From Branchiostoma floridae (lineage: Eukaryota > Chordata > Leptocardii > Amphioxiformes > Branchiostomatidae): 64,000 nt of DNA. The stretch spans positions 29,789,897-29,853,896 of the forward strand of contig NC_049979.1 in assembly GCF_000003815.2 (NCBI RefSeq), written 5' to 3'. Numbering within the stretch: position 1 is the first letter of the stretch; each line of letters opens with the position of its first letter. The notes beneath the pieces are model-generated. The model saw only the letters and a list, made by a program, of their open reading frames with translations, ran no database searches and was not told the origin of the DNA. This document shows, in pieces, positions 18,878-52,007 of the stretch. The position numbers and the translations under genes are program-made.

Positions 18878-19005
18878 CTTTTGTGTCTGGTAACTTTGTT
18901 TGGCCTTGATGTCTGGAGGCAGTCTGGTCTGCATGTTTCAATGTGTGGTCTGCATGTGTATATCCGGTCCGGCCTGCATGTCTCGAGGTGGTCCAGTGTG
19001 CATGT
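18878..19005 (-). other. P-type exon-like module (128 nt)
   Basis: Same boundaries and length as the copy at 14844-14971; open in phase 2 to phase 1, ending KLPDTK before GTAAGC. Confidence 0.5.
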
Positions 19006-19100
19006 CTAGAAGGAAGGAGTGAATAGTAGGTGTTTGGTTTTGAAGTCATTTATAAACAGTTTGGATGTCAAGTGTTGTTATAACAAGTAAGTGTGCTTAC

Positions 19101-19817
19101 CTTTTTTGTGAGGAAGCGTTGTCTCTGCATGTGTCGAGGTGGTCCGGTTTCTGTGTCTCGGGGTGGTCCGGCCTGGATGTCTCGAGGTTGTCCAGCCTGC
19201 ATGTGTCGATGTGGTCCGGACTGCTTGTCTCGAAGTGGTCCGGCCTGGATGTCTCCAGGTGGTCCGGCCTGCACGTCTGGAGGTGGTCTGGCCTGCATGT
19301 CTCAATGTGTTGTCTGCATGTGTAAAGGTGGTCCGGCCTGCATGTCTCGAGGTGGTCCGGCCTGCACGTCTCGAGGTGGTCCGGCCTGCACGTCTGGAGG
19401 TGGTCGGCCTCGATGTGTCGAGGTGGTCCGGCCTGCATGTCTAGAGGTGGTCTGGCCTGCATGTCTCAATGTGTGGTCTGCATGTGTACAGGTGGTCGAG
19501 CCTGGATGTCTCGAAGTGGTCCGGCCTGGACGTCTTGAGGTGGTTCAGCCTGGATGTCTCGAGGTGGTCTGGTCTGCATGTCTGGATGTGGTCTGGCCTG
19601 CATGTCTCAATGTGTGGTCTGCATGTGTAAAGGTGGTCCGGCCTGCATGTCTCGAGGTGGTCCGGCCTGGATGTCTTGAGGTGGTCCGGCCTGCACGTCT
19701 GGAGGTGGTCGGCCTGGATGTGTTGAGGTGGTCCGGCCTGCATGTCTAGAGGTGGTCCAGCCTGGATTTCTCGAGGTGGTGCGGCCTGCATGTGTCGAGG
19801 CAGTCCAGTCTGCATGT
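19101..19817 (-). other. Q-type exon-like module (717 nt)
   Basis: Full splice-site context. The frame entered in phase 1 starts with MQTGLPRHMQAAPP octads and stops at 19441, where a unit junction reads CTCTAGAC instead of CTCGAGAC. Confidence 0.5.
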
Positions 19818-19908
19818 CTAGAAGGAAGGAGTAACAGGTGGATGGTTTTGAAGACATTTATCAACAGTTTGGAGGTCAAGTGTTGTGATAAGAAGTAAGT
19901 GTGCTTAC

Positions 19909-20035
19909 CTTTTGTGTCTGGTAACTTTGTTTGGCCTTGATGTCTGGAGGCTGTCTGGTCTGCATGTTTCAATGTGTGGTCTGCATGTGTATAGCCGGTC
20001 CGGTCTGCATGTTTGAGGCGGTCAAGTCTGCATGT
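19909..20035 (-). other. P'-type exon-like module (127 nt)
   Basis: One base shorter than P; open only in phase 0 to phase 1. A second copy is at 21691-21817. Confidence 0.45.
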
Positions 20036-20130
20036 CTAGAAGGAAGGAGTGAATAGTAGGTGTTTGGTTTTGAAGTTATTTATCAACAGTTTGGAGGTGA
20101 AGTGTTGTTATAAGAAGTAAGTGTGCTTAC

Positions 20131-20287
20131 CTTTTGTGTGAGGAAGTTTTATCTCTACATAAGCAACACACTTTCTTCTGTGAGATTTGCATGTGTCAAG
20201 GTGGTGTGGCCTGCATATTTCAATGTGTGGTCTGCATGTGTATAGGGGGTCCGGCCTGCATGTCTTGTGGCGGTCCAGTGTGCATGT
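20131..20287 (-). other. P2-type exon-like module (157 nt)
   Basis: It begins like P but ends in a distinct non-repeat tail (SHRRKCVAYVEIKLPHTK in the phase 0 to phase 1 frame). A second copy is at 21913-22069 and an acceptor-less one at about 18630-18788. Confidence 0.45.
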
Positions 20288-20388
20288 CTAGAAGGAAGGA
20301 GTAACAGGTTGATGGTTTTGAAGACATTTATCAACAGTTTGGAGGTCAAGTCTTGTGATAACAAGTAAGTGTGCTTACCTTTTGTGTC

Positions 20389-20951
20389 TGGTAACTTTGT
20401 TTGGCCTTGATGTCTGGAGGCAGTCTGGTCTGCATGTTTCAATGTGTGGTCTGCATGTGTATATCCGGTCCGGCCTGCATGTCTCGAGGTGGTCCAGCAC
20501 TTGACACGGTCCGGCCTGCAGGGATGGAGGCGGTCCAGCGTGCTCATCTTGACGCTGTTCGACCTGCATGTCTTGACACGGTCCGGCCTGCAGGGATGGA
20601 GGCGGTCCAGCGTGCTCATCTTGACCCTGTTCGACCTGCATGTCTTGACACGGTCCGGCCTGCAGGGATGCAGGCGGTCCAGCATGTTCATCTTGACGCT
20701 GTTCGACCTGCATGTCTTGACACGGTCTGGCCTGCAGGGATGGAGGCGGTCCAGCGTGCTCATCTTGACGCTGTTCCACGTGCATGTCTTGACACGGTCC
20801 GGCCTGCAGGGATGGAGGCGGTCCAGCGTGGTCATCTTGACGTTGTTTGGCCTTGATGTCTGGAGGCTGTCTGGTCTGCATGTTTCAATGTGTGGTCTGC
20901 ATGTGTATAGCCGGTCCGGTCTGCATGTTTGAGGCGGTCAAGTCTGCATGT
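20389..20951 (-). other. R-type module: P interrupted by 72-bp repeats
   Basis: A P-type module into which about five 72-bp units (20494-20850) have been inserted, the same units that fill the long exons at 33-40 kb. All three entry frames meet a TGA early. A related, gap-broken copy lies at about 15922-17032. This links the two repeat types in one exon-like block. Confidence 0.5.
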
Positions 20952-21046
20952 CTAGAAGGAAGGAGTGAATAGTAAGTCTTTGGTTTTGAAGTTATTTATC
21001 AACAGTTTGGAGGTGAAGTGTTGTTATAAGAAGTAAGTGTGCTTAC

Positions 21047-21599
21047 CTTTTTTGTGAGGAAGCGTTGTCTCTGCATGTGTCGAGGTGGTCCGGTTTCTGT
21101 GTCTCGGGGTGGTCCGGCCTGGATGTCTCGAGGTTGTCCAGCCTGCATGTGTCGATGTGGTCCAGACTGCTTGTCTCGAAGTGGTCCGGCCTGGATGTCT
21201 CCAGGTGGTCCGGCCTGCACGTCTGGAGGTGGTCTGGCCTGCATGTCTCAATGTGTGGTCTGCATGTGTAAAGGTGGTCCGGCCTGCATGTCTCGAGGTG
21301 GTCCGGCCTGGATGTCTTGAGGTGGTTCAGCCTGGATGTCTCGAGGTGGTCTGGTCTGCATGTCTGGATGTGGTCTGGCCTGCATGTCTCAATGTGTGGT
21401 CTGCATGTGTAAAGGTGGTCCGGCCTGCATGTCTCGAGGTGGTCCGGCCTGGATGTCTTGAGGTGGTCCGGCCTGCACGTCTGGAGGTGGTCGGCCTGGA
21501 TGTGTTGAGGTGGTCCGGCCTGCATGTCTAGAGGTGGTCCAGCCTGGATTTCTCGAGGTGGTGCGGCCTGCATGTGTCGAGGCAGTCCAGTCTGCATGT
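21047..21599 (-). other. Q'-type module, fully open (553 nt)
   Basis: The only complete Q module that stays open from acceptor to donor: entered in phase 1 (G|AC ATG) and left in phase 2. It lacks the ~240-bp internal part that holds the stop in its sister at 19101-19817. Its phase class (1 to 2) complements the P class (2 to 1). Confidence 0.5.
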
Positions 21600-22160
21600 C
21601 TAGAAGGAAGGAGTAACAGGTGGATGGTTTTGAAGACATTTATCAACAGTTTGGAGGTCAAGTGTTGTGATAAGAAGTAAGTGTGCTTACCTTTTGTGTC
21701 TGGTAACTTTGTTTGGCCTTGATGTCTGGAGGCTGTCTGGTCTGCATGTTTCAATGTGTGGTCTGCATGTGTATAGCCGGTCCGGTCTGCATGTTTGAGG
21801 CGGTCAAGTCTGCATGTCTAGAAGGAAGGAGTGAATAGTAGGTCTTTGGTTTTGAAGTTATTTATCAACAGTTTGGACGTGAAGTGTTGTTATAAGAAGT
21901 AAGTGTGCTTACCTTTTGTGTGAGGAAGTTTTATCTCTACATAAGCAACACACTTTCTTCTGTGAGATTTGCATGTGTCAAGGTGGTGTGGCCTGCATAT
22001 TTCAATGTGTGGTCTGCATGTGTATAGGCGGTCCGGCCTGCATGTCTTGTGGCGGTCCAGTGTGCATTTCTAGAAAGAAGGAGTAACAGGTTGATGGTTT
22101 TGAAGACATTTATCAACAGTTTGGAGGTCAAGTGTTGTGATAACAAGTAAGTGTGCTTAC

Positions 22161-22288
22161 CTTTTGTGTCTGGTAACTTTGTTTGGCCTTGATGTCTGGA
22201 GGCAGTCTGGTCTGCATGTTTCAATGTGTGGTCTGCATGTGTATATCCGGTCCGGCCTGCATGTCTCGAGGTGGTCCAGTGTGCATGT
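22161..22288 (-). other. P-type exon-like module (128 nt)
   Basis: Intact splice context, phase 2 to phase 1, ending KLPDTK. Confidence 0.5.
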
Positions 22289-22383
22289 CTAGAAGGAAGG
22301 AGTGAATAGTAGGTGTTTGGTTTTGAAGTCATGTATAAACAGTTTGGATGTCAAGTGTTGTTATAACAAGTAAGTGTGCTTAC

Positions 22384-23050
22384 CTTTTTTGTGAGGAAGC
22401 GTTGTCTCTGCATGTGTCGAGGTGGTCCGGTCTTTGTGCGTCGGGGTGGTCCAGCCTGGATGTCTCGAGGTTGTCCAGCCTGCATGTCTCGATGTGGTCC
22501 GGCGTGCATGTCTCGAGGTTCTTCGGCCTGCATGTTTCAATGTGTGGTCTGCATGTGTAAAGGTGGTCCGGCCTGCATGTCTCGAAGTGGTCCGGCCTGG
22601 ATGTCTCCAGGTGGTCTGGCCTGCACGTCTGGAGGTGGTCTGGCCTTGATGTGTCGAGGTGGTCCGGTCTGCATGTGTAGAGGTGGTCCAGCCTGGATTT
22701 CTCGAGGTGGTCCGGCCTGCATGTCTTGAGGTCGTCCGCCCTGCATTTCTCGAGGTGGTCTGGCCTGTATGTCTCAATGTGTGGTCTTCATGTGTAAAGG
22801 TGGTGTGGCCTGCATGTCTCAATGTGTGGTCTTCATGTGTAGAGGTGGTCCGGCCTGCATGTCTCGAGCTGGTCCGGCCTGCATGTCTGGAGGTGGTCGG
22901 GCTGGATGTGTTGAGGTGGTCCGGCCTGCATGTCTAGAGGTGGTCCAGCTTGGATTTCTCGAGGTGGTCCGGCCTGCATGTGTCGACGTTGTGCAGTCTG
23001 TTTGTGTCGACCTGTGGTCTGCATGTGTATGGGTGGTCTGGTATGCATGT
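22384..23050 (-). other. Q-type exon-like module (667 nt)
   Basis: The acceptor CACCTTTTCTAG differs slightly from the usual CCTTCCTTCTAG. Entered in phase 1 it reads octads for about 70 codons and stops at 22833. Confidence 0.45.
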
Positions 23051-23145
23051 CTAGAAAAGGTGAGTCAATAAAAGGTGGTAGGTTTTATAGTCATTTAACA
23101 ATAGTTTGGATGTCAACTGTTGTTGTAACAAGTAAATATGCTCAC

Positions 23146-23273
23146 CTTTTGTGTGAGGTAGCTTTGTCCGGCTTTTATGTCTGGAGGCAGTCTGGCCTGC
23201 ATGTATCAATGTGTGGTCTGCATGTGTATAGGCGGTCCGGCCTGCATGTCTCGAGGTGGTCCAGTGTGCATGT
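23146..23273 (-). other. P-type exon-like module (128 nt), diverged
   Basis: Donor is GTGAGC instead of GTAAGC; open phase 2 to phase 1 and ending KLPHTK. A last partial module lies upstream at about 23365-23470, where homology to the array ends. Confidence 0.45.
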
Positions 23274-23480
23274 CTAGAAGGAAGGAGTAACAGGTGGATG
23301 GTTTTGAAGGCATTTATCAACAGTTTGGAGGTCAAGTGTTGTGATAACAAGTAAGTGTGCTTACCTTTTGTGTCTGGTAGCTTTGGCCTTGATATCTGGA
23401 GGCAGTCTGGTCTGCATGTTTAAATGTGTGGTCTGCATGTGTATAGTTGGTCCGGTCTGCATTACAGTAGTTCAAGGTTA

Positions 23481-30410: not shown

Positions 30411-32529
30411 CCTTAATGTCACATACATCCACTCATATCAGAATGAAAGCTGAGATATTCTGTTGAGTCATCCACTCATAAACGATAGGCAGACTCAGCA
30501 AAACACAAGTACAGGCTGTGTAAATTGCCAGCATCATTTTACTCACTTCATGTACTGTGAGGTCAATGGATGGAATGCTGTATGAATGTAAATGAGAATG
30601 CAACAGAATAATGCAACAAACGTATGGAATATGTAACTGGTTCAGAAGTTTTAAATAGTTAAAGGAGGAATGTTGTATGAGTAATTGCACTTGTTCATGG
30701 CATAATAATGTTTTTTGATAAGTGAATGTTCTCCTTGTCGAAAGATATTGCTTTGTTAAATGAACGGACCTATGTTGTACAGAAACAGAAAGTAAAACTA
30801 CAGTGAGCCGAACAGTTGACTTGTCTTTGCTACATTTCCATCTTGAACTTTCTCGTTACATGTTTGACTAAATCGGTAATGGATAAATACTAGTATGTAG
30901 AAGTACAAAAATAACTTTAACAACAAAAATAGTTGAAACAAGTATCAAACTACTGCATGGCTTTGTACAGCACCACTGAGCAGTGTGCTATAGTGGCCAA
31001 CTTTTATATAATGTAGAAATCCTCTTTCTGGTTTGTTTTCAAAATATAAACTCTTTGATATAGTATATCTCTATCTTCACAACAGTTTTACTTTTGAATG
31101 AAGTAACATGTACAGAGTAATATAAGCTTCCCTCTCCGTGTTATGATTTGGAAAACCTATTAGGAACATCACAAGCTGGAATCGTCTTGCACATGATAAT
31201 TTCCATTTGATGTAGTCGAATAATGTTTTTTGAAAGCTTTTTTTTGATAATGGAGTAAAAAAGGTTAACCTGAACATGTGAAATATGCACAAGAAGGTTT
31301 TTCTCATGATTTTGCAATTTTTTCAACAAAGGCCCAATATGTATGAACGGTAACAATAAGAATAACAACATAACAAAAGGGAAAATATACAATTTTGGTG
31401 GAAATATCCCAACTTTAACAATTTTAAGTGATTTACACCATAGACAGGAATGCCTATGGGCACAATTTGCATATGCAGCATCATACTAAATTTCAGATCA
31501 TGTACTATGCAGGCAAAGGCATAAGAGGTAAAGCTTTAGATTTGCAGTGTATAAATGTCAAAAGATCCCAAAGTTGAACAATTTAAAGCAATGTGTACCA
31601 GAAGTGAAGATGAAGTATTGTGGGCAGTTGTTTTACATACTTTCATGCCAAATTTAAGGTTGTTACTTGCTTTCAGTACATGGGCATATGAGCCAAAAGA
31701 TATATATTTTTAGTCAAAAAAGGCTCAGGCTGGAAACCTTAAAATAACTTATGTGTAATATGATCTATGTAGAAAGTATTAATGGCGTCCTGTGGGCATA
31801 CACGTCGCATGCATCTCTGTATCAAATGGCAATAGGTTGTAATACCGTGGCAGATTGGCTCGGAACATATACATTTGGTGTAAAAATATCCAAAAATGCT
31901 AAATATAATAATTTCTAAGGCCTCTATTAAAAAAGGATGGGAATGAAACGCTTGGGGCTATTTGGTATGTGTATCTTCATATTAAATTTCAGCTCATTTG
32001 GCACAAAAATAAAATATATGTACTTGAAGATTTCACAGGAGAAAGAGAAGAGTCAGAATGAAGGGCAATATATTGTAATTTATACTGTAAATTTAAAATG
32101 AAGGTATGTTTAGTCAATGTTTATGTACTGAAACAAATCAGGAAAGAGGTCTTCTGGTTCTAGAATGGGAGACGGCCAGGCAGATATGGTAGTCATGATG
32201 CTTTCAAGAGTTTCCTGGAGGGATGGAGATGTGCCTGTAGAGATGAAGATGTGGAAATATTATGTCACATTGTGAAGGATGCATCATGACACATAAGAAA
32301 GGTGAGTAGAAGGTACAACATGAGATGGGTTCTGAAGATGGGTTTGACTACTGCAGAAGGAAATGGTGCTTTTTGGAGTTTCCAGCTGGATAGAGCTACA
32401 TGGATGATTTCTTCTTTTCATTTGTCATCATGAGTCACTCTGGAAGGAGTCCAATAACAGGTTGTAGGTTTTTAATGGCTTAAGAATAGTTTGGATATCA
32501 AGTTTTTTATAACAAGTAAGTGTCCTTAC
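30411..32529. other. No gene seen; probable downstream side of the octapeptide gene
   Basis: AT-rich sequence. The segment 32260-32460 resembles parts of the introns at 33000-33130 and 37105-37215 (shared ATGATGACAAA and TCTATCCAGCTGGA motifs), so the gene's repeat family extends to about 32.2 kb. Farther left nothing is recognised. Confidence 0.5.
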
Positions 32530-32915
32530 TTTTTTTGTCTGGTAGCTCTGGCACATCATCATCAGCACGGTGTGAGGTCTGCATATCTGGAGGCGGTTCA
32601 GGCAGCATGTCACGAGACGGACTGGTCTGCATGTCTATGGGTGGTCCAGCGTGTATGTCTCGAGGTGGTTCAACCTGTATGTATCGAGGTGGTCTGGTCT
32701 CTATGTCTATGGGTGCTCTGGCCTCTGTAGGTGGTTGGCCTGCACATCTGGAGGCAGTCCAGACTGCAGGTCTCGGAGCGGTGTGGTCTGCATGTGTATG
32801 GGTAGTACGTCGTGGACGTCTTGAGGCGTTGCGGTCTGCAGATCTTGAGGCGGTCTGGTCTGCACGTGTTGAGGCGGCTGGGTGTACATGTCTCGAAGTG
32901 GTGTTGTCTGCATGT
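32530..32915 (-). CDS. Octapeptide-repeat gene, exon 10 (terminal or alternative)
   Basis: Acceptor CTTACTTCTAG lies before 32915 and donor AAA|GTAAGG after 32530. Joined to the phase-1 donor of exon 9 (33182), it reads MQTTPLRD-type octads and ends at a TAG (32707-32709), giving a 69-residue tail. Entered instead in phase 2, as from exon 8, all 386 bases are open and leave in phase 1 with a VPELPDKK ending like other modules. Both uses are compatible with the sequence. The second preserves the shared exon-end motif, so mutually exclusive use of exons 9 and 10 is possible. Low-complexity, Arg/His- and Pro-rich; function unknown. Confidence 0.5.
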
Positions 32916-33181
32916 CTAGAAGTAAGGAGTTCAATAATGGGTGGTAAGTTTTGAAGTCATTTAATAATAGTGTGGAAAGTACATCATTTTACAAAAACTA
33001 CATGACTTTTGTCCAGTGTAGGAGAATTGTGAACATTCCAGCTGAATAGAGCTGCATGGGTGAATTCTGCTTTGTCATCATCAGTCTGTCTCAAAGGAGT
33101 CTAATAACAAGTTGTAGTTTTTAGAGTCATTTAACAATAGTTTGGATGTCAAGTGTTCTCATAACAAGTAAGTGTCTTTAC

Positions 33182-35103
33182 CTTTTGTGTGAGGTAGCTC
33201 TGTGACATCATCATCATATTGTGTGGTCTGTTTATTTGGAGGTAGTTTGGTGTGCATGTCTCGTGGTGCTCCGATCTGCATGTCTCGAGGCGGTGCAGGC
33301 TGCATGTGTATGGATCCTCCAGCCTGTACGTCTGTCGGTAGTGTGGCCTGCATGTCTCGAGGTGTTTCACTCTGCGTGTCTCGAGGTGGTCCGGTGTGCA
33401 TGTTTCGACCCTTTCCACTCTGCATGTATTGAGATGGTTTAGCATGCATGTCTCCAGGTGGTTTGCTCTGCATGTCTCCAGGTGGTGTGGTCTGCATGTC
33501 TCCAGGTGGTTTGCTCTGCATGTCTCCAGGTGGTGTGGTCTGGATGTCTCCAGGTGGTGTGCTCTGCATGTCTCCAGGTGGTATGGTCTGCAGCACTCTT
33601 ATAGCCTGCAGGGATGGAGGCGGTCCAGCGTGCTCATCTTGACCCTGTTCGACCTGCATGTCTTGACACGGTCTGGGCTGCAGGGATGGAGGCGGTCCAG
33701 CGTGCTCATCTTGACCCTGTTCGACCTGCATGTCTTGACACGGTCCGGCCTGCAGGGATGGAGGTGGTCCAGTGTGCTCATCTTGACGCTGTTCGACCTG
33801 CATGTCTTGACACGGTCCGGCCTGCAGGGATGGAGGCGGTCCAGCGTGCTCATCTTCAGGCTGTTCGACCTGCATGTCTTGACAGGGTCCGGTCTGCAGG
33901 GATGGAGGCGGTCCAGCGTGCTCATCTTGACCCTGTTCGACCTGCATGTCTTGACACGGTCCAGGCTGCAGGGATGGAGGCGGTCCAGCGTGTTCATCTT
34001 GACCCTGTTCGACCTGCATGTCTTGACACGGTCCAGGCTGCAGGGATGGAGGCGGTCCAGCGTGCTCATCTTGACACTGTTCGACCTGCATGTCTTGACA
34101 CGGTCCGGGCTGCAGGGATGGAGGCGGTCCAGCGTGCTCATCTTGACCCTGTTCGACCTGCACTTGACACGGTCCGCCCTGCAGGGATGCAGGCGGTCCA
34201 GCGTGCTCATCTTGACGCTGTTCGACCTGCACTTGACACGGTCCGGCCTGCAGGGATGGAGGCGGTCTAGCGTGCTCATCTTGACGCTGTTCGACCTGCA
34301 CTTGACACGGTCCGGGCTGCAGGGATGGAGGTGGTCCAGCGTGCTCATCTTGACGCTGTTCGACCTGCATGTCTTGACACGGTCCGGGCTGCAGGGATGG
34401 AGGCGTTCCAGCGTGCTCATCTTGACGCTGTTCGACCTGCATGTCTTGACACGGTCCGGCCTGCAGGGATGGAGGCGGTCCAGCGTGCTCATCTTGACGC
34501 TGTTCGACCTGCACTTGACACGGTCCGGGCTGCAGGGATGGAGGTGGTCCAGCGTGCTCATCTTGACGCTGTTCGACCTGCATGTCTTGACACGGTCCGG
34601 GCTGCAGGGATGGAGGCGGTCCAGCGTGCTCATCTTGACGCTGTTCGACCTGCATGTCTTGACACGGTCCGGCCTGCAGGGATGCAGGCGGTCCAGCGTG
34701 GTCATCTTGACCCTGTTCGACCTGCATATCTTGACACGGTCCGGTCTGCAGGGATGGAGGCGGTCCAGTGTGCTCATCTTGACCCTGTTCGACCTGCATG
34801 TCTTGACACGGTCCGGCCTGCAGGGATGGAGGCGGTCCAGCGTGCTCATCTTGACGCTGTTCGACCTGCATGTCTTGACACGGTCCGGCCTGCAAGGATG
34901 GAGGCGGCCCGGCGTGCTCATCTTCAGGCTGTTCGACCTGCATGTCTCGACACGGTCCGGGCTTCTGGGATAGAGGCGGTCCAGCCTGCATGTCTTGAGG
35001 CTGTTCGACCTGCATGTCTTGACGCAGTCCAGCCTGCAGATGTAGAGGCGGTCCGGCCTGTACATCACATGGCGGACTGACCTGGATGTTTAGAAGTGCA
35101 TTT
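33182..35103 (-). CDS. Octapeptide-repeat gene, exon 9 (long 24-mer exon)
   Basis: Acceptor TTCATTCTTCACACAG precedes 35103 and donor AAAAG|GTAAAG follows 33182. The 1,922-nt exon enters in phase 2 and leaves in phase 1 with no stop. It begins NALLNIQVSPPCD, then has about 20 units of a 23-24-residue repeat made of three octads (starts MQVEQ, EHAGPP and LQAGPC). It then turns into PPGDMQTT-type octads and a unique end with DDD and ELPHTK. Each long unit has one cysteine (GPC). All 69/72-bp length changes keep the frame. Rich in Gln, Pro, Glu, Asp; no membrane segment. The minus frame is preferred because only it runs cleanly into the splice sites. Not recognised; possibly structural or secreted (inference). 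Confidence 0.6.
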
Positions 35104-35962
35104 CTGTGTGAAGAATGAAAAGATACATGGTTAAGGTTAATTGAGGTAAATGGTACCATAGACCATGTAATGTTTGCAAAATTCACAGGTCTATGTGTTA
35201 GTAAGTTTGCACCGTATGTGGCAAACAAAAGTTGGTATATAACTAGCCTTATATGTCGGACTGTGTCTGAACATGATGTATAATATTTATCATATTTGGA
35301 AATATCATGAATCAGAAATTGTTTTGTTGTGTGTTCAGAGAAGTAAGGTTTCCCTTTTTTTTAAGATATGCAATATTCACGGTTTTTGCTTCCGAATACA
35401 TCATATGTCATGTCCAAGGTCCATATATTCCAAGGAGGAATATCCGGATTAAAAGAAAAAGGTTTCATGAAGCAGGATTGTATCATTTCTGGACCATTGT
35501 CAGACGAGATTTTGATGTATCAGAATATCATGAATCAGGAAATTTTATGGGTGATTTCTTGACAAGAATTTTTTGTTCTCCCGAATACATGTCATTGATG
35601 TTTCCTGTTTCTAATTGGACTGAAAGCAGGCTTTTACCTATCTTGAAGTATTTTTTGGCTGTGTGAGAAGTTTAACTTTCTTTTAAGTGTGTTTGGTGCA
35701 TGCTTGATTTTTGAATTGTTTGATAAGGCACAGAAATTGCAACGTATGCTGTAAAGGTTGGGAAATGCAGGGAGTATATTGTACAATGTCCTCTATCAAC
35801 TGTGTTAGAATTGCTAGGATATGGAAGAAAGGGCACCAATAGCAAGTTGTTGAAAATTTATAATAATGGTTAAGTATTTTGTGGTTGTCAGAAGTTTGAT
35901 CTGCCTCTATATGTGTTTGGCTGTGTGATGATGCAATGCAATTTGATGTGTAAGGAATGTAC

Positions 35963-36415
35963 CTTTGCTGGTGTACGGATGGTTTGGCCTGCATGTCTCG
36001 AGGCGGTCTGGCCTGGAAGTCTCGAGGTGGGCTGGCCTGCGTGTCTCGAGGCGGTATGCACTGTATGTCTAGAGTTGGTCTGGTGGTCTGCTGGGAATGT
36101 CTCGAGCCGGTGCGGCCTGTGTGTGTCGAGGCGGTGCGGCTTGCGTGTGTCGACGAGGTGCGGCCTGCGTGTCTCGAGGCGGTGCGGCCTGCGTGTCTCG
36201 AGGCGGTCCTGGCTGCATGTCTATGGGTGGTCCGGCCTGAGTGTCTCGACGTGGTTTGGTCTGCATGTGCGGTCTGCATGTGTTGAGGCGGTCCGGCCTG
36301 CATGTCACGAGGCGATTCAGCCTGGATGTGTTGAGGCGGTCCGTCCTGTAGGTGTTGAGGCGGTCCAGTCTGCACGTCTCGAGACACTCTGGCCTGGATG
36401 TTTAGAAGTGCATTT
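35963..36415 (-). CDS. Octapeptide-repeat gene, exon 8 (cassette, phase 2-2)
   Basis: 453 nt (151 codons), acceptor CATTCTGCACTCAG before 36415 and donor AAAG|GTACAT after 35963. It enters and leaves in phase 2, so it can be added or skipped without a frame change. It starts NALLNIQARVSRD, reads MQ-PP octads, switches by a short unit into SRHAGRTA-type octads (Arg/His/Thr-rich), then returns to PPRDMQ and ends KPSVHQQ. It is a close copy of exons 1-3; the following 859-nt intron is also homologous to theirs. Confidence 0.6.
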
Positions 36416-36884
36416 CTGAGTGCAGAATGAAAAGATACATGGTAAGGTTAATTGAGGTAAATGGTACCAAAGACAATGTAATGTTTGGAAAATTCACAGG
36501 TCTATGTGTAAGTTTGCACTGCATGTGGCAGACAAAAGTTGGTATATAACTAGCCTTATATGTCCGACTGTGTCTGAACACGATGTATAATATTTATCAT
36601 ATTCGGAAATATCATGAATCAGAGATTGTGTTGTTGTGTGTTCAGACAAGTAAGACTTTCCTTTTTTTTCAAGATATGCATTATTCACGGTTTATGCTTC
36701 CGAATACATCATATGTCATTTTACACATGTCCAAGGTCCATATATTCCGAGGAGGAATATCCTGACTAAAATGAAAAGGTTCTACAAAGCAGGATTGTAT
36801 AATTTCTGGACCATTGTCAAACAAGATTTTGATGTATCAGAATATCATGAATCAGGAAATCTTATGGGTGATTTCTGGATGTAC

Positions 36885-37038
36885 CTTTGTTGCTGTACGG
36901 ATGGTTTGGCCTGCATGTCTCCAGGTGGTGTGGTCTGCATGCCTCCAGGTGGTGTGCTCTGCATGTCTTGAGGTTGTCCAGTGTGCATGTCTTGACGTGG
37001 TCTGGTCTGTATGTCTCTAGGTAAACTGGACAGCATGT
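36885..37038 (-). CDS. Octapeptide-repeat gene, exon 7
   Basis: 154 nt with acceptor TCCTTTCTTCTAG (before 37038) and donor CAAAG|GTACAT (after 36885). Enters in phase 1, leaves in phase 2. It reads DMLSSLPRD then DIQTRPRQ, DMHTGQPQ and PPGD octads and ends KPSVQQQ, the same end as the cassette exons. It bridges the phase-1 exit of exon 6 and the phase-2 entry of exon 8. Confidence 0.58.
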
Positions 37039-37288
37039 CTAGAAGAAAGGAGTCCAATAATGGGTGGTAGGTTTTGAAGTCATTTAGCAATAGTTTGCAA
37101 AGTACATCATTTTGCAAAAACTATATGACTCTTGTTCAGTAGCAGAATTGTGAACAGTCCAGCTGAATAGAGCTGCATAGATGAATTCTCCTTCTGCTTT
37201 GTTGTCATCAGTTTCTCTGGATGGAGTCCAATAACAGGTTTTAGGTTTTGAAGTAATTTAACAATATGTTGCATGTACATGGTGTTAC

Positions 37289-37400
37289 CTTTTCTGTCAG
37301 GTAGCTGTGTCACATCATGATGGGCACACTGTGAGGACTGCATGTCTCGAGACGGTCTGGCCAGGATGATTCGAGGTCGTCCAGTCTTGTTGTCTTGTGG
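37289..37400 (-). CDS. Octapeptide-repeat gene, exon 6
   Basis: 112 nt, acceptor CACCTTTTTGACAG before 37400 and donor AAAAG|GTAACA after 37289. Phase 0 in, phase 1 out. Mostly non-repeat: PQDNKTGRPR, ILARPSRDMQ, then QCAHHDVTQLPDRK. The end motif LPDRK is the counterpart of ELPHTK in exon 9. The intron after it (37039-37288) retains a copy of a segment also found at 32.4 and 33.0 kb. Confidence 0.55.
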
Positions 37401-37909
37401 CTGTCAAAAAGGTGTTGGAGAAGACATGTGTTCGAAGGAGGTGGAAATAGCAAGAGGTAGCGCTTTATTTAGAATTACTGTAATGATTGTTTCTGTCAAT
37501 GTACTTTTATGTTAAGGTTTGCAAGGTGATGACTGTAACGTAAACTTGTCATTTACCTTTAACAAATAATACAAGAGACTTTTTGTACCCACATGTGAGG
37601 CCACTGTGAATGTTTAGTTTTGACGACAAGTTACATCTTTTCAAGAATGTGAAAGGTGGCTATTGAGGAGACAAAGTGAATTACATTAGTACAAGGCTAC
37701 AAGAGTATTGAGAGTAACTAACCTTGAGTTAATATGTGGTGGAAGGAATGAGTTAGAATATGGGTGGCAAAGGTGTGCCAAATGACACAATGGATATGAT
37801 GCATTGTTGTAGGATGGTGAATAGTGTGAAATGGTGAAGAAATCTTTGTAGGGAGGCAATATGAATGTCTTAGATGCAGGGAAAAGGAGAGGATGCATTT
37901 GGTACACAC

Positions 37910-37987
37910 CTTCCTACAGTAGTGAGTGGTGTCGAAGTTACTCTTGCATCTGTAGCAGAAGTTTCTTACGATTGGTTTAAGCACCAT
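37910..37987 (-). CDS. Octapeptide-repeat gene, exon 5 (26-codon Cys-rich)
   Basis: 78 nt, exactly 26 codons, between a strong acceptor (TGCCTATTTCTCCTCAG) and donor AGGAAG|GTGTGT. Phase 0 on both sides, matching the phase-0 exit of exon 4 and phase-0 entry of exon 6. The peptide contains FCYRCKSN and HYC, three cysteines in a short span, unlike the repeat domains. The CxxC is suggestive of metal or disulfide binding, but the domain is too short to assign. It might be alternatively used because skipping it keeps the frame. Confidence 0.5.
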
Positions 37988-38185
37988 CTGAGGAGAAATA
38001 GGCAGAAGTGAAAGGTTTGGCTGTAGCATATAGTGCAGGGGCTAGCTATAGCTAGTTGTGAGGTGTTAGCTGTACTAGGTAGCAGTTTGAAATCAGAGAG
38101 GCATCCGAGGAGATAACTGATTGTTGTATTTTTCCAAAGTGATTCATAGTAGTGGAAGGCTATAAGAGTATGAAAAGTAACTAAC

Positions 38186-40475
38186 CTTGAATTTTAGTTT
38201 CATTCTCGATGTTGTCATGCCTTGAGATGGTCTAACATGCATGTCTCGAGATGGTCCAGCCTGTACGTCTAGAGGCGGTTCAGTCTGCATGTGTATGGGT
38301 GCTCTGACCTGCACGTCTGGAGGTACTCCTGTCTGGACATCTGGAGGTACTCCTGTCTGGACGTCTGGAGGACGTCCGGCCTGCACGTCTGGAGATGGCA
38401 CAGCCTGCAGGGATGGAGACGGCATGGCATGTAGGGATGCAGGCGGCACGGTGTGCACATCTTCAGGCTGTTCAACCTCCATGTCTTGACACGGTCCAGT
38501 CTGCAGGGATGGAGGCAATGGAAAAGGTACGGTCTGCAGAGCTGGAGGCGGTCCGGCCTGCAGGGATGGAGGCAGCCCGGCGTGCACATCTTCATGCTGT
38601 TCAACCTGCATGTCTTGACACGGTCCGGGCTGCAGGGATGGAGGCGGTCCAGTGTGCTCATCTTGACGCTGTTCGACCTGCATGTATTGACACGGTCCGG
38701 CCTGCAGGGATGGAGGCGGTCCAGTGTGCTCATCTTGACCCTGTTCCACCTGCATGTCTTGACACGGTCCGGCCTGCAGGGATGGAGGCGGTCCAGCGTG
38801 CTCATCTTGACCCTGTTCGACCTGCACTTGACACGGTCTGGCCTGCAGGGATGGAGGCTGTCCAGCGTGCTCATCTTGACCCTGTTCGACCTGCATGTCT
38901 TGACACGGTCCGGGCTGCAGGGATGGAGGCGGTCCAGCGTGCTCATGTTGACCCTGTTCGACCTGCACTTGACACGGTCCGGCCTGCAGGGATGGAGGCG
39001 GTCCAGCGTGCTCATCTTGACGCTGTTCGACCTGCACTTGACACGGTCTGCCCTGCAGGGATGCAGGCTGTCCAGCGTGCTCATCTTGACGCTGTTCGAC
39101 CTGCATGTCTTGACACGGTCCGGCCTGCAGGGATGGAGGCGGTCCAGCGTGCTCATCTTGACCCTGTTCGACCTGCATGTCTTGACACGGTCCGGCCTGC
39201 AGGGATGCAGGCGGTCCAGCATGTTCATCTTGACGCTGTTCGACCTGCATGTCTTGACACGGTCCGGCCTGCAGGGATGGAGGCGGTCCAGTGTGCTCAT
39301 CTTGACCCTGTTCCACCTGCATGTCTTGACACGGTCCGGCCTGCAGGGATGGAGGCGGTCCAGCGTGGTCATCTTGACGTTGTTCGACCTGCATGTCTTG
39401 ACACGGTCCGGCCTGCAGGGATGCAGGCTGTCCAGCGTGCTCATCTTGACCCTGTTCGACCTGCATGTCTTGACACTGTCTGGCCTGCAGGGATGGAGGC
39501 GGTCCAGTGTGCTCATCTTGACCCTGTTCGACCTGGATGTCTTGACACGGTCCGGTCTGCAGGGATGCAGGCGGTCCACCGTGTTCATCTTGACGCTGTT
39601 TGACCTGCATGTCTTGACACGGTCCGGCCTGCAGGGATGGAGGCAGTCCAGCTTGCTCATCTTGACCCTGTTCAACCTGCATTTGACACGGTCCGGCCTG
39701 CAGGGATGCAGGCGGTCCAGCGTGCTCATCTTGACCCTGTTCGACCTGCATGTCTTGACACGGTCCAGTCTGCAGGGATGCAGGCGGTCCACCGTGCTCA
39801 TCTTGACGCTGTTTGACCTGCATGTCTTGACACGGTCCGGCCTGCAGGGATGGAGGCGGTCCAGTGTGCTCATCTTGACCCTGTTCGACCTGCATTTGAC
39901 ACGGTCCGGCCTGCAGGGATGGAGGCGGTCCAGCGTGCTCATCTTGACGCTGTTCGACCTGCACTTGACACGGTCCGGCCTGCAGGGATGGAGGCGGTCC
40001 AGCGTGCTCATCTTGACCCTGTTCGACCTGCATGTCTTGACACGGTCCGGCCTGCAGGGATGCAGGCGGTCCAGCATGCTCATCTTGACGCTGTTCGATC
40101 TGCACTTGACACGGTCCGGCCTGCAGGGATGGAGGCGGTCCAGCGTGCTCATCTTGACCCTGTTCGACCTGCATGTCTTGACACGGTCCGGTCTGCAGGG
40201 ATGCAGGCGGTCCAGCGTGCTCATCTTGACGCTGTTCGACCTGTATGTCTTGACACGGTCCATCCTGCAGGGATGGAGGCGGTCCAGCGTGCTCATCTTG
40301 ACGCTGTTCGACCTGCATGTCTTGACACGGTCCGGGCTGCAGGGATGGAGGCGTTCCAGCATGCTCATCTTGACCCTGTTCGACCTGCACTTGACACGGT
40401 CCGGTCTGCAGGGATGGAGGCGGTCCGGCCTGCTCATCACGTGGCGGTCTGACCTGGATGTTTCGAAGTGCATTT
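38186..40475 (-). CDS. Octapeptide-repeat gene, exon 4 (longest 24-mer exon)
   Basis: 2,290 nt, acceptor TTCATTCTTCACACAG before 40475, donor TTCAAG|GTTAGT after 38186; phase 2 in, phase 0 out, no stop. It begins NALRNIQVRPPRD and holds about 26 repeats of 23 or 24 residues with consensus octads MQVEQGQD, EHAGPPPS and LQAGPCQD. Variation is concentrated at a few positions (G/R after VEQ, P/A after GPP, A/P/T before GPC). The 3' part degenerates through VPPASL and PPDVQ units and ends in a basic tail, TSRMKLKFK. One cysteine per unit. It is a sister of exon 9 and of the decayed plus-strand copy at 50560-52007. Confidence 0.62.
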
Positions 40476-41152
40476 CTGTGTGAAGAATGAAAAGATACAT
40501 GGTAAGGTTAATTGAGGTAAATGTAATGTTTGCAAAATTCACAGGTTTATATGTTACTTTGCACGGCATGTGGCAAACAAAAGTTGGTATTTTAACTAGC
40601 CTTATATGTAGGACTGTGTCTGAACATGATGTATAATATTTATCATATTTGGAAATATATAAAAGTTTATCATTTCTGGACCATTGTCAGACGAGATTTT
40701 GATGTATCAGAATATTATGAATCAGGAAGTTTTATTGGTGATCTCTGGACGAAAAGAATTTTTTGTTCTCCCGAATACATGTCATCCATGTTTGCTGTTT
40801 CTAATTGCACTGAAAGCAGGCTTTTACCTATCTTGAAGTATTTTTTAGCTGTGTGAGAAGTTTAACTTTCCTTTAAGTGTGTTTGGTGCATGCTTGATTT
40901 TTGAATTGTTTGATAAGGCACAGAAATTGCAACATAGGTTGTAAAGGTTGGGAAATGCAGGGAGTATATTGTACAATGTCCTCTATCAACTGTGTTAGAA
41001 TTGCTAGGATATGGAAGAAAGGGCACCAATAGCAAGTTGTTGAAGATTTATAATAATGGATAAGTATTTTGTGGTTCTCAGAAGTTTCATCTGCCTCTAT
41101 ATGTGTTTGGCTGTGTGATGATGCAATGCAATTTGATGTGTAAGGAATGTAC

Positions 41153-41677
41153 CTTTGTTGGTGTACGGATGGTTTGGCCTGCATGTCTCGAGGCGGTCTG
41201 GCGTGGAAGTGTCGAGGTGGGGTGGCCTGCGTGTCTCGACGCCGTGCGGACTGTATGTCTAGAGTTGCTCTGGTGGTCTGGTGGGAATGTCTCGAGGCGG
41301 TGCGGCCTGCGTGTGTCGAGGCGGTGCGGCCTGCGTGTGTCGAGGCGGTGCGGCCTGCGTGTGTCGAGGCGGTGCGGCCTGCGTGTGTCGAGGAGGTGCG
41401 GCCTGCGTGTCTCGAGGCGGTGTGACCAGCGTGTCTCGAGGCGGTGCGGCCTGCGTGTCTCGACGCGGTCCTGGATGCATGTCTATGGGTGGTCCGGCCT
41501 GAGTGTCTCGACGTGGTTTGGTCTGCATGTGCGGGCTGCATGTGTTGAGGCAGTCCGGCCTGCATGTTACGAGGCGGTTCAGCCTGGATGTGTTGAGGCG
41601 GTCCGTCCTGTAGGTGTTGAGGCGGTCCAGTGTGCACGTCTCGAGACATTCTGGCCTGGATGTTTAGAAGTGCATTT
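41153..41677 (-). CDS. Octapeptide-repeat gene, exon 3 (cassette, phase 2-2)
   Basis: 525 nt (175 codons), acceptor CATTCTGCACTCAG and donor AAAG|GTACAT; phase 2 in and out. Same architecture as exon 8 but with three more 24-bp units in the Arg/His-rich part (RTASTHAG octads, near-identical copies). Leaves through PPRDMQAKPSVHQQ. The downstream intron (40476-41152) is a shortened copy of its sisters. Confidence 0.6.
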
Positions 41678-42542
41678 CTGAGTGCAGAATGAAAAGATAC
41701 ATGGTAAGGTTAATTGAGGTAAATGGTACCAAAGACAATGTAATGTCTGCAAAATTCACAGGTCTATGTGTTAGTAAGTTTGCACCGCATGTGGCAGACA
41801 AAAGTTGGTATTTTAACTAGCCTTATATGTCCGACTGTGTCTGAACATGATGTATCATATTTATCATATTCGGAAATATCATGAATCAGAAATTGTGTTG
41901 TTGTGTGTTCAGGCAAGTAAGACTTCCCTTTTTTCCAAGATATGCATTATTCACGGTTTTTGCTTCCGAATACATCATATGTCATTTTACACATGTCCAA
42001 GGTCCATATATTCCGAGGAGGAATATCCTGATTAAAAGGAAAAGGTTCCATGAAGCAGGATCATTTCTGGACCATTGTCAGACGAGATTTTGATGTATCA
42101 GAATATCATGAATCAGGAAATCTTATGGGTGATTTGTGGATGTAAAGAATTTTTTGTTCTCCCGAATTCATGTCATTGATGTTTGCTGTTTCTAATTGGA
42201 GTGAAAGCAGTCTTTTACCTATCTTGAAGTAATTTTGGCTGTGTGAGAAGTTTAACTTTTCTTTAAGTGTGTTTGGTGCATGCTTAATTTTTGAATTGTT
42301 TGATAAGGCACAGAAATTGCAACGTATGCTGTAAAGGTTGGGAAATGCAGGGAGTATATTGTACTATGTCCTCTATCAACTGTGTTAGAATTGGTAGGAT
42401 ATGGAAGAAAGGGCACCAAGAGCAAGTTGTTGAAGATTTATAATAATGGTTAAGTATTTTGTGGTTGTCAGAAGTTTTATCTGCCTCTATATGTGTTTGG
42501 CTGTGTGGTGATGCAATCCAATTTGATGTGTAAGGAATGTAC

Positions 42543-42995
42543 CTTTGTTGGTGTACGGATGGTTTGGCCTGCATGTCTCGAGGCGGTCTGGCCTGGAAGT
42601 GTCGAGGTGGGGTGGCCTGCGTGTCTCGAGGCGGTATGCACTGTATGTCTAGAGTTGGTCTGGTGGTCTGCTGGGAATGTCTCGAGCCGGTGCGGCCTGT
42701 GTGTGTCGAGGCGGTGCGGCTTGCGTGTGTCGACGAGGTGCGGCCTGCGTGTCTCGAGGCGGTGCGGCCTGCGTGTCTCGACGCGGTCCTGGATGCATGT
42801 CTATGGGTTGTCCGGCCTGAGTGTCTCGACGTGGTTTGGTCTGCATTTGCGGCCTGCATGTGTTGAGGCGGTCCGGCCTGCATGTCACAAGGCGGTTCAG
42901 CCTGGATGTGTTGAGGCGGTCCGTCCTGTAGGTGTTGAGGCGGTCCAGTCTGCACGTTTCGAGGCACTCTGGTCTGGATGTTTAAAAGTGCATTT
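42543..42995 (-). CDS. Octapeptide-repeat gene, exon 2 (cassette, phase 2-2)
   Basis: 453 nt, same splice contexts and phases as exon 3, matching exon 8 in length and unit number. Internal frame change and return are conserved, with SRHAGRTA octads in the middle and PPRDMQ octads at both ends. No stop. Confidence 0.6.
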
Positions 42996-43865
42996 CTGAG
43001 TGCAGAATGAAAAGATACATGGTAAGGTTAATTGAGGTAAATGGTACCATAGACCATGTAATGTCTGCAAAATTCACAGGTCTATGTGTTAGTAAGTTTG
43101 CACCGCATGTGGCAGACAAAAGTTGGTAATATAACTAGTCTTATATGTCAGACTGTGTCTGAACACGATGTATAAGATTTATCATATTCGGAAATATCAT
43201 GAATCAGAGATGGTGTTGTTGTGTGTTCAGGCAACTAAGACTTCCCTTTTTTTCAAGATATGCAGTTCACGGTTTTTGCTTTCGAATACATCATATGTCA
43301 TTTTACACATGTCCAAGGTCCATATATTCCGAGGAGGAATATCCTGATTAAAAGAAAAAGGTTCCACGAAACAGGATTGTATCATTTTTGTACCATTGTC
43401 AGACGAGATTTTGATGTATCAGAATATCATGAATCAGGAAATCTTATGGGTGATTTCTGGATGTAAAGAATTTTTTGTTCTCCCAAATACATGTCATTGA
43501 TGTTTGTGTTGTTTCTAATTGGAGTGAAAGCAGGCTTTTACCTATCTTGAAGTATTTTTGGCTGTGTGAGAAGTTTAACTTTCTTTTAAGTGTGTTTGAT
43601 GCATGCTTAATTTTTGAATTGTTTGATAAGGCACAGAAATTGCAACGTATGCTGTAAAGGTTGGGAAATGGAGGGAGCACAATGTACTATGTCCTCTATC
43701 AACTGTGTTAGAATTGGTAGGATATGGAAGAAAGGGCACCAAGAGCAAGTTGTTGAAGATTTATAATAATGGTTATGTATTTTGTGGTTGTCAGAAGTTT
43801 TATCTGCCTCTATATGTGTTTGGCTGTGTGGTGATGCAATGCAATTTGATGTGTAAGGAATGTAC

Positions 43866-44390
43866 CTTTGTTGGTGTACGGATGGTTTGGCCTGCATGTC
43901 TCGAGGCGGTCTGGCGTGGAAGTGTCGAGGTGGGCTGGCCTGCGTGTCTCGACGCCGTGCGGACTGTATGTCTAGAGTTGCTCTGGTGGTCTGGTGGGAA
44001 TGTCTCGAGGCGGTGCGGCCTGCGTGTGTCGAGGCGGTGCGGCCTGCGTGTGTCGAGGCGGTGCGGCCTGCGTGTGTCGAGGCGGTGCGGCCTGCGTGTG
44101 TCGAGGAGGTGCGGCCTGCGTGTCTCGAGGCGGTGTGACCAGTGTGTCTCGAGGCGGTGCGGCCTGCGTGTCTCGACGCGGTCCTGGATGCATGTCTATG
44201 GGTGGTCCGGCCTGAGTGTCTCGACGTGGTTTGGTCTGCATGTGCGGGCTGCATGTGTTGAGGCAGTCCGGCCTGCATGTCACGAGGTGGTTCAGCCTGG
44301 ATGTGTTGAGGCGGTCCGCGCTGTAGGTGTTGAGGCGCTCCAGTGTGCACGTCTCGAGGCACTCTGGCCTGGATGTTTAGAAGTGCATTT
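43866..44390 (-). CDS. Octapeptide-repeat gene, exon 1 of the model (5' end not found)
   Basis: 525 nt, acceptor CATTCTGCACTCAG before 44390, donor AAAG|GTACAT after 43866; phase 2 in and out. Almost identical to exon 3. Because it has an acceptor it is not the true first exon; upstream homology to the intron repeat ends near 44525, and no exon with a signal peptide or start codon could be joined in phase 2. The start may lie in the diverged copies at 45.7-46.6 kb, beyond them, or be lost. Confidence 0.58.
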
Positions 44391-44975: not shown

Positions 44976-45700
44976 CTGCAAAATACACCCGATATTATTA
45001 TTATTATTATCATTAACTGGATTGAATAAACAGAGCAAAAATGATGCCACAAATTATGTGCACCCATTCGGGGCCCCGTCATTTTACTATCACGCACGCT
45101 GGCGGGCAAGCGATGCTCAAGTCGATGAACTTAGTTATCCCATTGGTAGAGCGACGACCATTTAAGAAAAATCGATCCCTACGTAGTAAAAAATGCTGTA
45201 GCCATTGTTGCTGCGTAAAAGGCAAGATAAAATGGCAATCAAGGAAGTCGAAAAGCGAACATGCCGTACAGTTCGACGTAAACAAGGTGTTGCCGTTTTG
45301 CGGCAAGTTGGTCTCACCGTCAGAGGTAAACTTTTGAACACACCGTATTTGAACAAGTCATGTAGTACAAAATATGACTGATATTTGATAGTGAAAAATA
45401 GTAATAAAAACTTTTAGTGCGTTTCTATTTACATAGGATGTTTTGAAATGCACAGCGATTGTCTGGTTGTTATCATGTCGGCATATGGACCCCTTTTTTG
45501 TGTTGGAACGTTCTGGCACGAAAGTTGAAAACCTGGGCTTCTTGCTCCAACTTTCTCCGGAAATCACACTCTTTCGGACAGTGATATGTGAAAAATCATA
45601 AGGTATAACAATCGTATGTTACCTGTGGTCTTCTGGCAACGCATCTGTCCAATGTCGGTCCATGCCGTTAATACTACAGACTACAGTTGAGTAGAGTCAA
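44976..45700. other. Unassigned, with overlapping short frames
   Basis: A plus frame (45041-45337) is basic and cysteine-rich (SKKCCSHCCCVKGK) and is followed by a donor-like GAG|GTAAAC. A minus frame overlaps it. Neither can be supported further. Confidence 0.25.
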
Positions 45701-50402: not shown

Positions 50403-52007
50403 ATTTACATATAAGCCTAGTTAAAATATCAACTTTTGTTTGCCACATGCCGTGCAAACTTACTAACATATAAACCTGTGAATTTTGCAAATATTACATG
50501 GTCTATGGTAGCATTTACCTCAATTAACCTTACCATGTATCTTTTCATTCTTCACACAGAAATGCACTTCGAAACATCCAGGTCAGACCGCCACGTGATG
50601 TGCAGGCCGGACCGCCTCCATCCCTGCAGCCCGGACCGTGTCAAGTGCAGGTCGAACAGCGTCAAGATGAGCACGCTGGAACGCCTCCATCCCTGCAGTC
50701 CGGACCGTGTCAAGACATGCAGGTCGAACAGTGTCAAGATGAGCACGCTGGACCGCCTCCATCCCTGCAGGCCGGACTGTGTCAAGTGCAGGTCGAACAG
50801 CGTCAAGATGAGCACGCTGGACCGCCTCCATCCCTGCAGTCTGGACCGTGTCAAGACATGCAGGTCGAACAGGGTCAAGATGAGCACGCTGGACCGCCTC
50901 CATCCCTGCATGCCGGACCGTGTCAAGACATGCAGGTCGAACAGGGTCAAGATGAGCACGCTGGACCGCCTCCATCCCTGCAGGCCGGACCGTGTCAAGA
51001 CATGCAGGTCGAACAGGGTCAAGATGAGCACGCTGGACCGCCTCCATCCCTGCATGCCGGACCGTGTCAAGACATGCAGGTCGAACAGGGTCAAGATGAG
51101 CACGCTGGACCGCCTCCATCCCTGCAGGCCGGACCGTGTCAAGACATGCAGGTCGAACAGGGTCAAGATGAGCACGCTGGACCGCCTCCATCCCTGCAGG
51201 CGAGACCGTGTCAAGACATGCAGATCGAACAGGGTCAAGATGAGCACGCTGGACCGCCTCCATCCCTGCAGGCCGGACCGTGTCAAGACATGCAGGTCGA
51301 ACAGGGTCAAGATGAGCACGCTGGACCGCCTCCATCCCTGCAGCCCGGACCGTGTCAAGACATGCAGGTCGAACAGGGTCAAGATGAGCACGCTGGACCG
51401 CCTCCATCCCTGCAGGCCGGACCGTGTCAAGACATGCAGGTCGAACAGTGTCAAGATGAGCTCCCTGCAGACCGGACCGTGTCAAGACATGCAGGTCGAA
51501 CAGGGTCAAGATGAGCACGCTGGACCGCCTCCATCCCTGCAGACCGGACCGTGTCAAGTGCAGGTCGAACAACGTCAAGATGAGCACGCTGGACCGCCTC
51601 CATCCCAGAAGCCGGGACCGTGTCAAGACATGCAGGTCAAACAGGGTCAAGATGAGCACACTGGACCGCCTGCATCCCTGCAGGCCGGACCGTGTCAAAT
51701 GTAGGTCGAACAGGGTCAAGATGAGCACGCTGGACCGCCTCCATCCCTGCAGCCCGGACCGTGTCAAGACATGCAGGTCGAACAGCGTCAAGATGAACAT
51801 GCTGGACCGCCTGCATCCCTGCAGGCCGGACCGTGTCAAGACATCCAGGTCCAACAAGGTCAAGATGAGCACGCTGGACCGCCTCCATCCCTGCAGGATG
51901 GACCGTGTCAAGACATGCAGGTCGAACAGCGTCAAGATGAGCACACTGGACCGCCTGCATCCCTGCAGGCCGGACCGTGTCAAGACATGCAGGTCGAACA
52001 GGGTCAT
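50403..52007 (+). pseudogene. Inverted, decayed copy of the long 24-mer exon and its upstream intron
   Basis: From 50403 the plus strand matches the reverse complement of 40.6-38.9 kb: the intron end, acceptor TTCATTCTTCACACAG and exon starting at 50560 (NALRNIQVRPPRD). About 20 repeat units follow, up to a donor-like CAT|GTAAGT at 52007/52008. The reading frame used by exons 4 and 9 is broken by a 19-bp deletion inside a unit near 51462, and the frame that results meets TAG at 51702-51704 (CAAATGTAG where other units have CAAGTGCAG). The copy sits inside the satellite, opposite in strand to the gene. It is probably a dead transposed or inverted segment. Confidence 0.75.

What the first reader, a model, noticed from the sequence alone, without database searches (positions are those of the whole stretch)
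32530..44390. Ten-exon gene for a giant octapeptide/24-mer repeat protein on the minus strand
Ten blocks flanked by good acceptors (CACACAG, CACTCAG, TTCTAG, CTCCTCAG, TTTGACAG) and donors (GTACAT, GTTAGT, GTGTGT, GTAACA, GTAAAG) have phases 2-2, 2-2, 2-2, 2-0, 0-0, 0-1, 1-2, 2-2, 2-1, 1-stop. Every junction matches and no internal stop occurs over at least 2,239 codons. Four of the junctions are between non-homologous exons, so the match is not only a result of exon duplication. I do not recognise the protein (Gln/Pro-rich with one Cys per 24-mer).
Basis: partly seen in the sequence, partly recalled or inferred. Interest (0 to 1): 0.88.

Follow-up and report, generated by a model that had tools for sequence, protein, structure and literature searches.

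The report
Twelve-exon octapeptide repeat gene model
The window holds what looks like a complete 12-exon gene, seen at one place in its genome, for a roughly 2,200-residue glutamine- and proline-rich repeat protein that grew from a 24-base DNA repeat; its reading frame seems to have been kept, but no constraint on its amino acids and no evidence of expression could be shown.

Summary
The chain can be completed: an ATG exon fits upstream (45663-45623) and a terminal exon with a stop fits downstream (32234-32110). Eight exons are open in exactly one frame, each time the required one. In four paralogous cassettes the exons differ by one 72-base gap block, the introns by 11 blocks, 8 of them not multiples of three. 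Thirteen sibling exon pairs nearby are all unusable and an inverted copy is broken. All 43 reported genome matches lie in this cluster. Against: replacements look neutral, a spacing test against siblings is not significant, no AATAAA/ATTAAA lies within 1.3 kb, and no RNA or second species was available. No Pfam cut-off was reached. Most likely a young, lineage-restricted gene for a disordered, multivalent Gln/Pro repeat protein; its function is inferred only.

The parts
45623..45663 (-). exon 1, proposed start (MDRHWTDALPEDHR), phase 0-2
   Evidence: ATG in GGCATGG context, in-frame TGA 11 codons upstream at 45699 with no ATG between; donor CAG|GTAACA at the 97.9th percentile; region found once in the genome
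43866..44390 (-). exon 2, cassette type I (2-2), 525 bases
42543..42995 (-). exon 3, cassette type I (2-2), 453 bases
41153..41677 (-). exon 4, cassette type I (2-2), 525 bases
38186..40475 (-). exon 5, first large 72-base (24-residue) array (2-0)
   Evidence: 18 spacings of 72, 8 of 69, one 57, one 96; one frame open over the whole exon
37910..37987 (-). exon 6, Cys/His-containing 26-residue exon (0-0), skippable in frame
   Evidence: one other genome copy at C6 with intron flanks, 82% over 215 bases
37289..37400 (-). exon 7 (0-1)
36885..37038 (-). exon 8 (1-2)
   Evidence: two of three frames open, one of them required
35963..36415 (-). exon 9, cassette type I (2-2), 453 bases
33182..35103 (-). 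exon 10, second large 72-base array plus octapeptide tail (2-1)
   Evidence: 14 spacings of 72 and 4 of 69; one frame open over the whole exon
32530..32915 (-). exon 11, type II cassette; frame broken inside (65-base spacing where 72 would keep frame), so exon 10 to exon 11 gives a stop after 2,253 codons
   Evidence: the exon is open when entered in phase 2
32110..32234 (-). exon 12, terminal exon ending TAA (TSPSLQETLESIMTTISAWPSPILEPEDLFPDLFQYINID)
   Evidence: acceptor CTCTACAG at the 99.8th percentile; found once in the genome; joins exon 10 or exon 7 in phase
13990..23365 (-). decayed sibling array of type II exons (negative control)
   Evidence: 13 acceptor-donor pairs, 0 of 13 both a multiple of three and stop-free
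50560..52006 (+). inverted partial copy of the exon 5/10 array, frame-broken
   Evidence: spacing 55 instead of 72; reading ends in a stop at 51512-51514

Best explanation
A real, single-locus, probably lineage-restricted protein-coding gene. Shown from sequence: 12 exons with matching phases from ATG to TAA, built largely by duplication of two kinds of exon cassette that carry arrays of one 24-base unit. Inferred: the transcript is spliced with exon 11 skipped (2,225 residues, 241 kDa), or with exon 11 included and the protein cut short at 2,253 residues. The product has no signal peptide or membrane segment that I could see (highest 19-residue hydropathy mean 0.46), so it should be intracellular: a disordered chain of Pro-Pro/Gln octapeptides with one Cys per 24 residues in its two long arrays, changing length by in-frame gain and loss of units. 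Its most likely role is as a multivalent scaffold or crosslinking substrate in which length and spacing matter more than exact residues. That last step is a guess (about one in four).
For: Phases and splice-site ranks. Eight of eight exons with a unique open frame use the required one. Exons of four cassettes differ by one 72-base gap block while their introns hold 11, 8 of them not multiples of three; chance of none in the exons 0.008-0.016. All array length variants in exons 5 and 10 are multiples of three: 72, 69, 57, 96. Related DNA nearby is broken: 0 of 13 sibling pairs usable, inverted copy frame-shifted. ATG and terminal exons complete the chain and each was found once in the genome. 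Composition and hydropathy.
Against: No amino-acid constraint: pN/pS in the gene frame is 0.85-2.86 over six cassette pairs; array variant types are 12 silent and 28 replacement against 9.2 and 29.2 expected, with 0 stops against 1.6 expected. Comparing unit spacings between gene and siblings gives Fisher p 0.089, and the share of odd spacings that are not multiples of three is no lower in the gene (9 of 23) than in the siblings (10 of 35). Exon 11 is frame-broken. No AATAAA or ATTAAA between 32109 and 30800, and no TATA[AT]A between 46400 and 45664. No RNA, second individual or second species was available. No homologue found.
Confidence: 0.6

Rival explanations
1. A young minisatellite cluster that once carried, or happens to carry, spliceable exons but makes no functional protein: a transcribed non-coding or recently dead gene whose frame has not yet decayed.
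For: Neutral replacement pattern; frame break in exon 11; most of the cluster around it is plainly decayed; the 72-base arrays are open in several frames on both strands anyway; spacing test not significant; no canonical polyadenylation signal found nearby.
Against: Non-multiple-of-three indels in cassette introns but none left unbalanced in cassette exons; unique open frames always agree with the phases; siblings of similar DNA broke while this one did not.
Confidence: 0.3
2. The gene is real but the true product differs: exon 6 and exon 11 are alternative or spurious, and the arrays are joined differently (for example exon 9 to exon 11 to exon 12, leaving out exon 10).
For: Exon 6 is a 78-base 0-0 block that can be left out in frame, and its other genome copy reads on through the donor; exon 11 is open throughout when entered in phase 2; exons 7 and 10 can both join exon 12.
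Against: Exon 6 has the best donor in the model (99.8th percentile) and a strong acceptor (99.2nd).
Confidence: 0.4
3. Exon 11's frame break, or the number of units, is an assembly error or a private allele of the sequenced individual, and the common allele reads from exon 10 through exon 11 into exon 12.
For: Repeat arrays are hard to assemble and this window holds six runs of N; both halves of exon 11 are in the octapeptide frame that the neighbouring junctions need.
Against: None tested; no reads or other individuals were available.
Confidence: 0.25

Closest known systems
Involucrin and small proline-rich proteins of the vertebrate epidermis (recalled; only a search listing seen)
   Same: Gln- and Pro-rich short tandem repeats (octapeptide-like in the small proline-rich proteins), Cys and Gln at fixed places, fast change in repeat number, no signal peptide
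   Different: No sequence relation was found or sought beyond Pfam and PDB; this model has 12 exons rather than a compact gene, little Lys (1.0%), and a lancelet-like source
Lineage-restricted orphan genes with coding minisatellites (recalled as a class; PMC1273636 and PMC6162428 seen as search listings)
   Same: Coding tandem repeats with unit lengths divisible by three, variable in copy number, restricted to one locus here
   Different: Here the repeat sits in several duplicated exon cassettes with introns and in two large arrays; no named family matches
WHIM1 (PF15612), weak Pfam hit on the arrays
   Same: 18.9 bits against a cut-off of 19.1 on exon 5 and 18.1 on exon 10
   Different: Below cut-off, about 20 residues, no stretch significant on its own; taken as a compositional chance match

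Membership tests
spliced protein-coding gene | GT-AG introns with matching phases from a start to a stop | tested here: met
   met with exon 11 skipped, while with exon 11 the chain ends at an early stop
spliced protein-coding gene | frame-keeping indels in exons but not in introns | tested here: met
   exon gap blocks 1 (72 bases), intron gap blocks 11, 8 not multiples of three; P 0.008-0.016. The spacing comparison with siblings (p 0.089) does not add support
spliced protein-coding gene | purifying selection on amino acids | tested here: not met
   replacements at or above neutral expectation
spliced protein-coding gene | transcription and translation | not testable with these tools
   No RNA or peptide data on hand
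involucrin / small proline-rich cornified-envelope proteins | sequence homology to these proteins | not tested
   Only Pfam and PDB scans were run; no cut-off reached. No claim of membership
involucrin / small proline-rich cornified-envelope proteins | crosslinking by transglutaminase | not testable with these tools
   Analogy from Gln/Pro/Cys composition only
zinc-finger protein (exon 6) | match to a curated zinc-finger family | tested here: not met
   Best Pfam hit IBR_1, 14.5 bits against a cut-off of 27; PDB best E 1.1

The most novel reading that the evidence does not exclude
An orphan animal gene whose coding sequence, apart from its first, sixth and last exons and a few edges, grew out of a single 24-base unit: the unit was amplified into arrays, packaged into two symmetric exon cassettes with their own splice sites, duplicated, and joined to a captured exon with a relative on another chromosome, giving a protein of more than 2,200 residues in which only frame and periodicity, not residue identity, are selected.
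Probability: 0.35. Interest if true: 0.62.

Novelty: new member of a known kind. Interest (0 to 1): 0.42.

Why it matters
If expressed, it is a clear case for asking how a large new protein can be assembled from a minisatellite by exon-cassette duplication, with decayed siblings beside it as built-in controls. It would also be a test of whether selection can hold frame and repeat spacing while leaving residues nearly free. If not expressed, it is a warning that open frames over repeat units divisible by three, with copied splice sites, can look like a giant gene.

Tried and rejected
Structure of the array: AlphaFold2 on exon 10 gave mean pLDDT 54.5, pTM 0.45, a beta-rich repeat. The control, the same DNA read in a different (nonsense) frame, gave 53.5 and 0.43, also beta-rich. 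The model therefore says nothing and no fold search was run on it.

Sequence relatives: Pfam on nine peptides in two calls gave nothing at cut-off; of the cassette exons only exon 2 was sent, and exons 8 and 11 were not sent. PDB by sequence: exon 6+7 peptide best E 1.1; four 24-mers, none at E up to 1. Viral contigs: 3 stretches matched a pattern, none confirmed. Papers: octapeptide repeat + amphioxus, 0 papers; three further lancelet searches with looser terms showed no paper on this gene among the 10, 12 and 8 listed of 106, 59 and 19. This is not proof that it is unpublished.

Rejected: the 14-23 kb array as a second working gene; of the pattern-found sites, acceptors 18317 and 15830 and donors 23365, 18630, 15922 and 13779 were left out of that count because they border runs of N or had no partner. 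Superseded: one search had off-by-one exon ends (mended); one search placed the three-base gap wrongly in 69-base units (redone).

Not resolved: whether the ORF1-like reading next to the exon 6 relative on C6 is a repeat family; that genome search did not complete.

Full report
What is there. The window is C1:29789897-29853896 of a held genome of 513,431,437 bases in 431 contigs, a size that fits a lancelet, probably Branchiostoma floridae (my recollection; not tested). I completed the chain at both ends. Upstream, 45663-45623 is an ATG exon (MDRHWTDALPEDHR) ending in phase 2, as the next acceptor needs; an in-frame stop lies 11 codons upstream with no ATG between. Downstream, 32234-32110 is a terminal exon that opens in phase 1 and ends TAA. 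Each was found once in the genome, its own place.

The break. Exon 11 (32915-32530) holds a 65-base spacing in its repeat where 72 would keep frame. Read from exon 10 it stops after 2,253 codons of the whole chain; with exon 11 left out, exon 10 joins exon 12 in phase and the chain is 2,225 codons long. Exon 11 is open throughout if entered in phase 2, for example from exon 9.

Tests for coding that favour it. Splice sites rank high among all GT and AG of the stretch (matrix recalled). Exons 2-7, 9 and 10 have one open frame each, the required one in 8 of 8; exons 2, 3, 4 and 9 are copies, so this is about five independent agreements. Among the four type I cassettes, exons show one gap block (72 bases) and introns 11, of which 8 are not multiples of three; none in the exons has probability 0.008-0.016 under the intron rate. 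Arrays in exons 5 and 10 vary only by multiples of three: 32 spacings of 72, 12 of 69, one 57, one 96. Neighbouring related DNA did break: 0 of 13 sibling pairs at 14-23 kb are both a multiple of three and stop-free (two are multiples of three, one is stop-free), and the inverted copy at 50560-52006 has a 55-base unit and then stops.

Tests that do not favour it. pN/pS between cassettes in the gene frame is 1.98, 2.86, 1.90, 2.51, 0.85 and 2.41, from few differences. Variant types in 44 array units are 12 silent and 28 replacement against 9.2 and 29.2 expected from the spectrum, and 0 stops against 1.6; in cassettes 6 and 31 against 9.3 and 27.1, and 0 stops against 0.7. This is what free amino-acid change would give. 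In the cassettes the changes even look more silent in the frame one base over (13 silent, 24 replacement), which I cannot explain beyond the frame change inside the cassettes. Comparing unit spacings, gene 9 of 248 and siblings 10 of 129 are not multiples of three (Fisher p 0.089); 8 of the gene's 9 are a pair of 37 and 56 repeated in four cassettes, which together restore frame, the ninth is exon 11. Over the 72-base arrays a second minus frame and plus-strand frames are open too, so absence of stops alone is weak. No AATAAA/ATTAAA was found in 32109-30800 and no TATA[AT]A in 46400-45664.

Architecture and origin. Introns 7 and 10 are alike (83% over 240 bases), introns 10 and 11 share 153 bases (80%), and intron 8 matches the cassette introns (93% over 473 bases). 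So the gene is a mosaic of two cassette types: type I (2-2; exons 2, 3, 4, 9 and the 5' ends of 5 and 10) and type II (ends of 7 and 10, starts of 8 and 11, and the siblings). All 43 genome matches to the 24-mer peptide reported are in this cluster, C1:29803907-29841825 (150 of 159 candidates scored). Exon 6 with its intron flanks has one other copy, at C6 about 3949897-3950103, 82% over 215 bases; there the reading runs through what is the donor here, and its frames are broken. In the window a 59-base direct repeat (38193-38135 and 37730-37672, 81%) flanks that segment, which suggests insertion or local duplication.

The protein. The 2,225-residue form is 241 kDa, pI 5.8, 15.6% Gln, 14.2% Pro, 55 Cys with 30 spacings of 24 and 12 of 23, 1.0% Lys, highest 19-residue hydropathy mean 0.46. 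Autocorrelation peaks at 8, 16 and 24. No Pfam cut-off was reached (nearest WHIM1, 18.9 against 19.1 bits, on the repeats). AlphaFold2 was uninformative: the real frame scored 54.5 and a nonsense frame 53.5.

How it most likely works. Inferred: an intracellular, disordered, multivalent chain whose repeat number and spacing matter more than residue identity, by analogy (recalled) with Gln/Pro repeat proteins used as scaffolds or transglutaminase substrates. The acidic-hydrophobic end (EPEDLFPDLFQYINID) could be a docking motif; untested.

Verdict. I put 0.6 on a working coding gene, 0.3 on a gene-like but non-functional repeat cluster. Kind: a new member of a known kind (lineage-restricted coding-minisatellite gene).

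Noticed in passing
window 13990-23365, minus strand: A decayed tandem array of type II exons with conserved acceptors and donors but broken frames (13 pairs); interrupted by four of the window's runs of N.
   Followed up: yes
window 50560-52006, plus strand: Inverted partial copy of the exon 5/10 array, about 91% identical, frame-broken by a short unit.
   Followed up: yes
L013 1898-2104 (C6 about 3949897-3950103): The only other genome copy of the exon 6 segment; next to it is an open stretch (EDAEKVFGRFMAERLGL...) that by eye recalls an ORF1-type RNA-binding domain of a retroelement. Pfam found no family and the genome search for it did not complete.
   Followed up: partly
window 38193-38135 and 37730-37672, minus strand: A 59-base direct repeat (81%) flanks the exon 6 segment and duplicates the exon 5 donor region.
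   Followed up: no
window 37987-37722, minus strand: Exon 6 stays open past its donor for about 89 codons up to a copy of the exon 5 donor sequence, including a second Cys pair (VCTKC).
   Followed up: no
window 46600-45901, minus strand: Old, about 74-82% copies of cassette intron pieces lie upstream of exon 1, as if further cassettes once stood there.
   Followed up: no
window 47033-47316: A 153-base unit in 1.9 copies with a tRNA-like GGTTCGAATCC stretch by eye; ARAGORN reports no tRNA in the window, run with the bacterial code.
   Followed up: partly
window 2172-3584 and 62197-62817, minus strand: Open frames that by eye look like a reverse transcriptase and an endonuclease part of retroelements; not scanned.
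   Followed up: no
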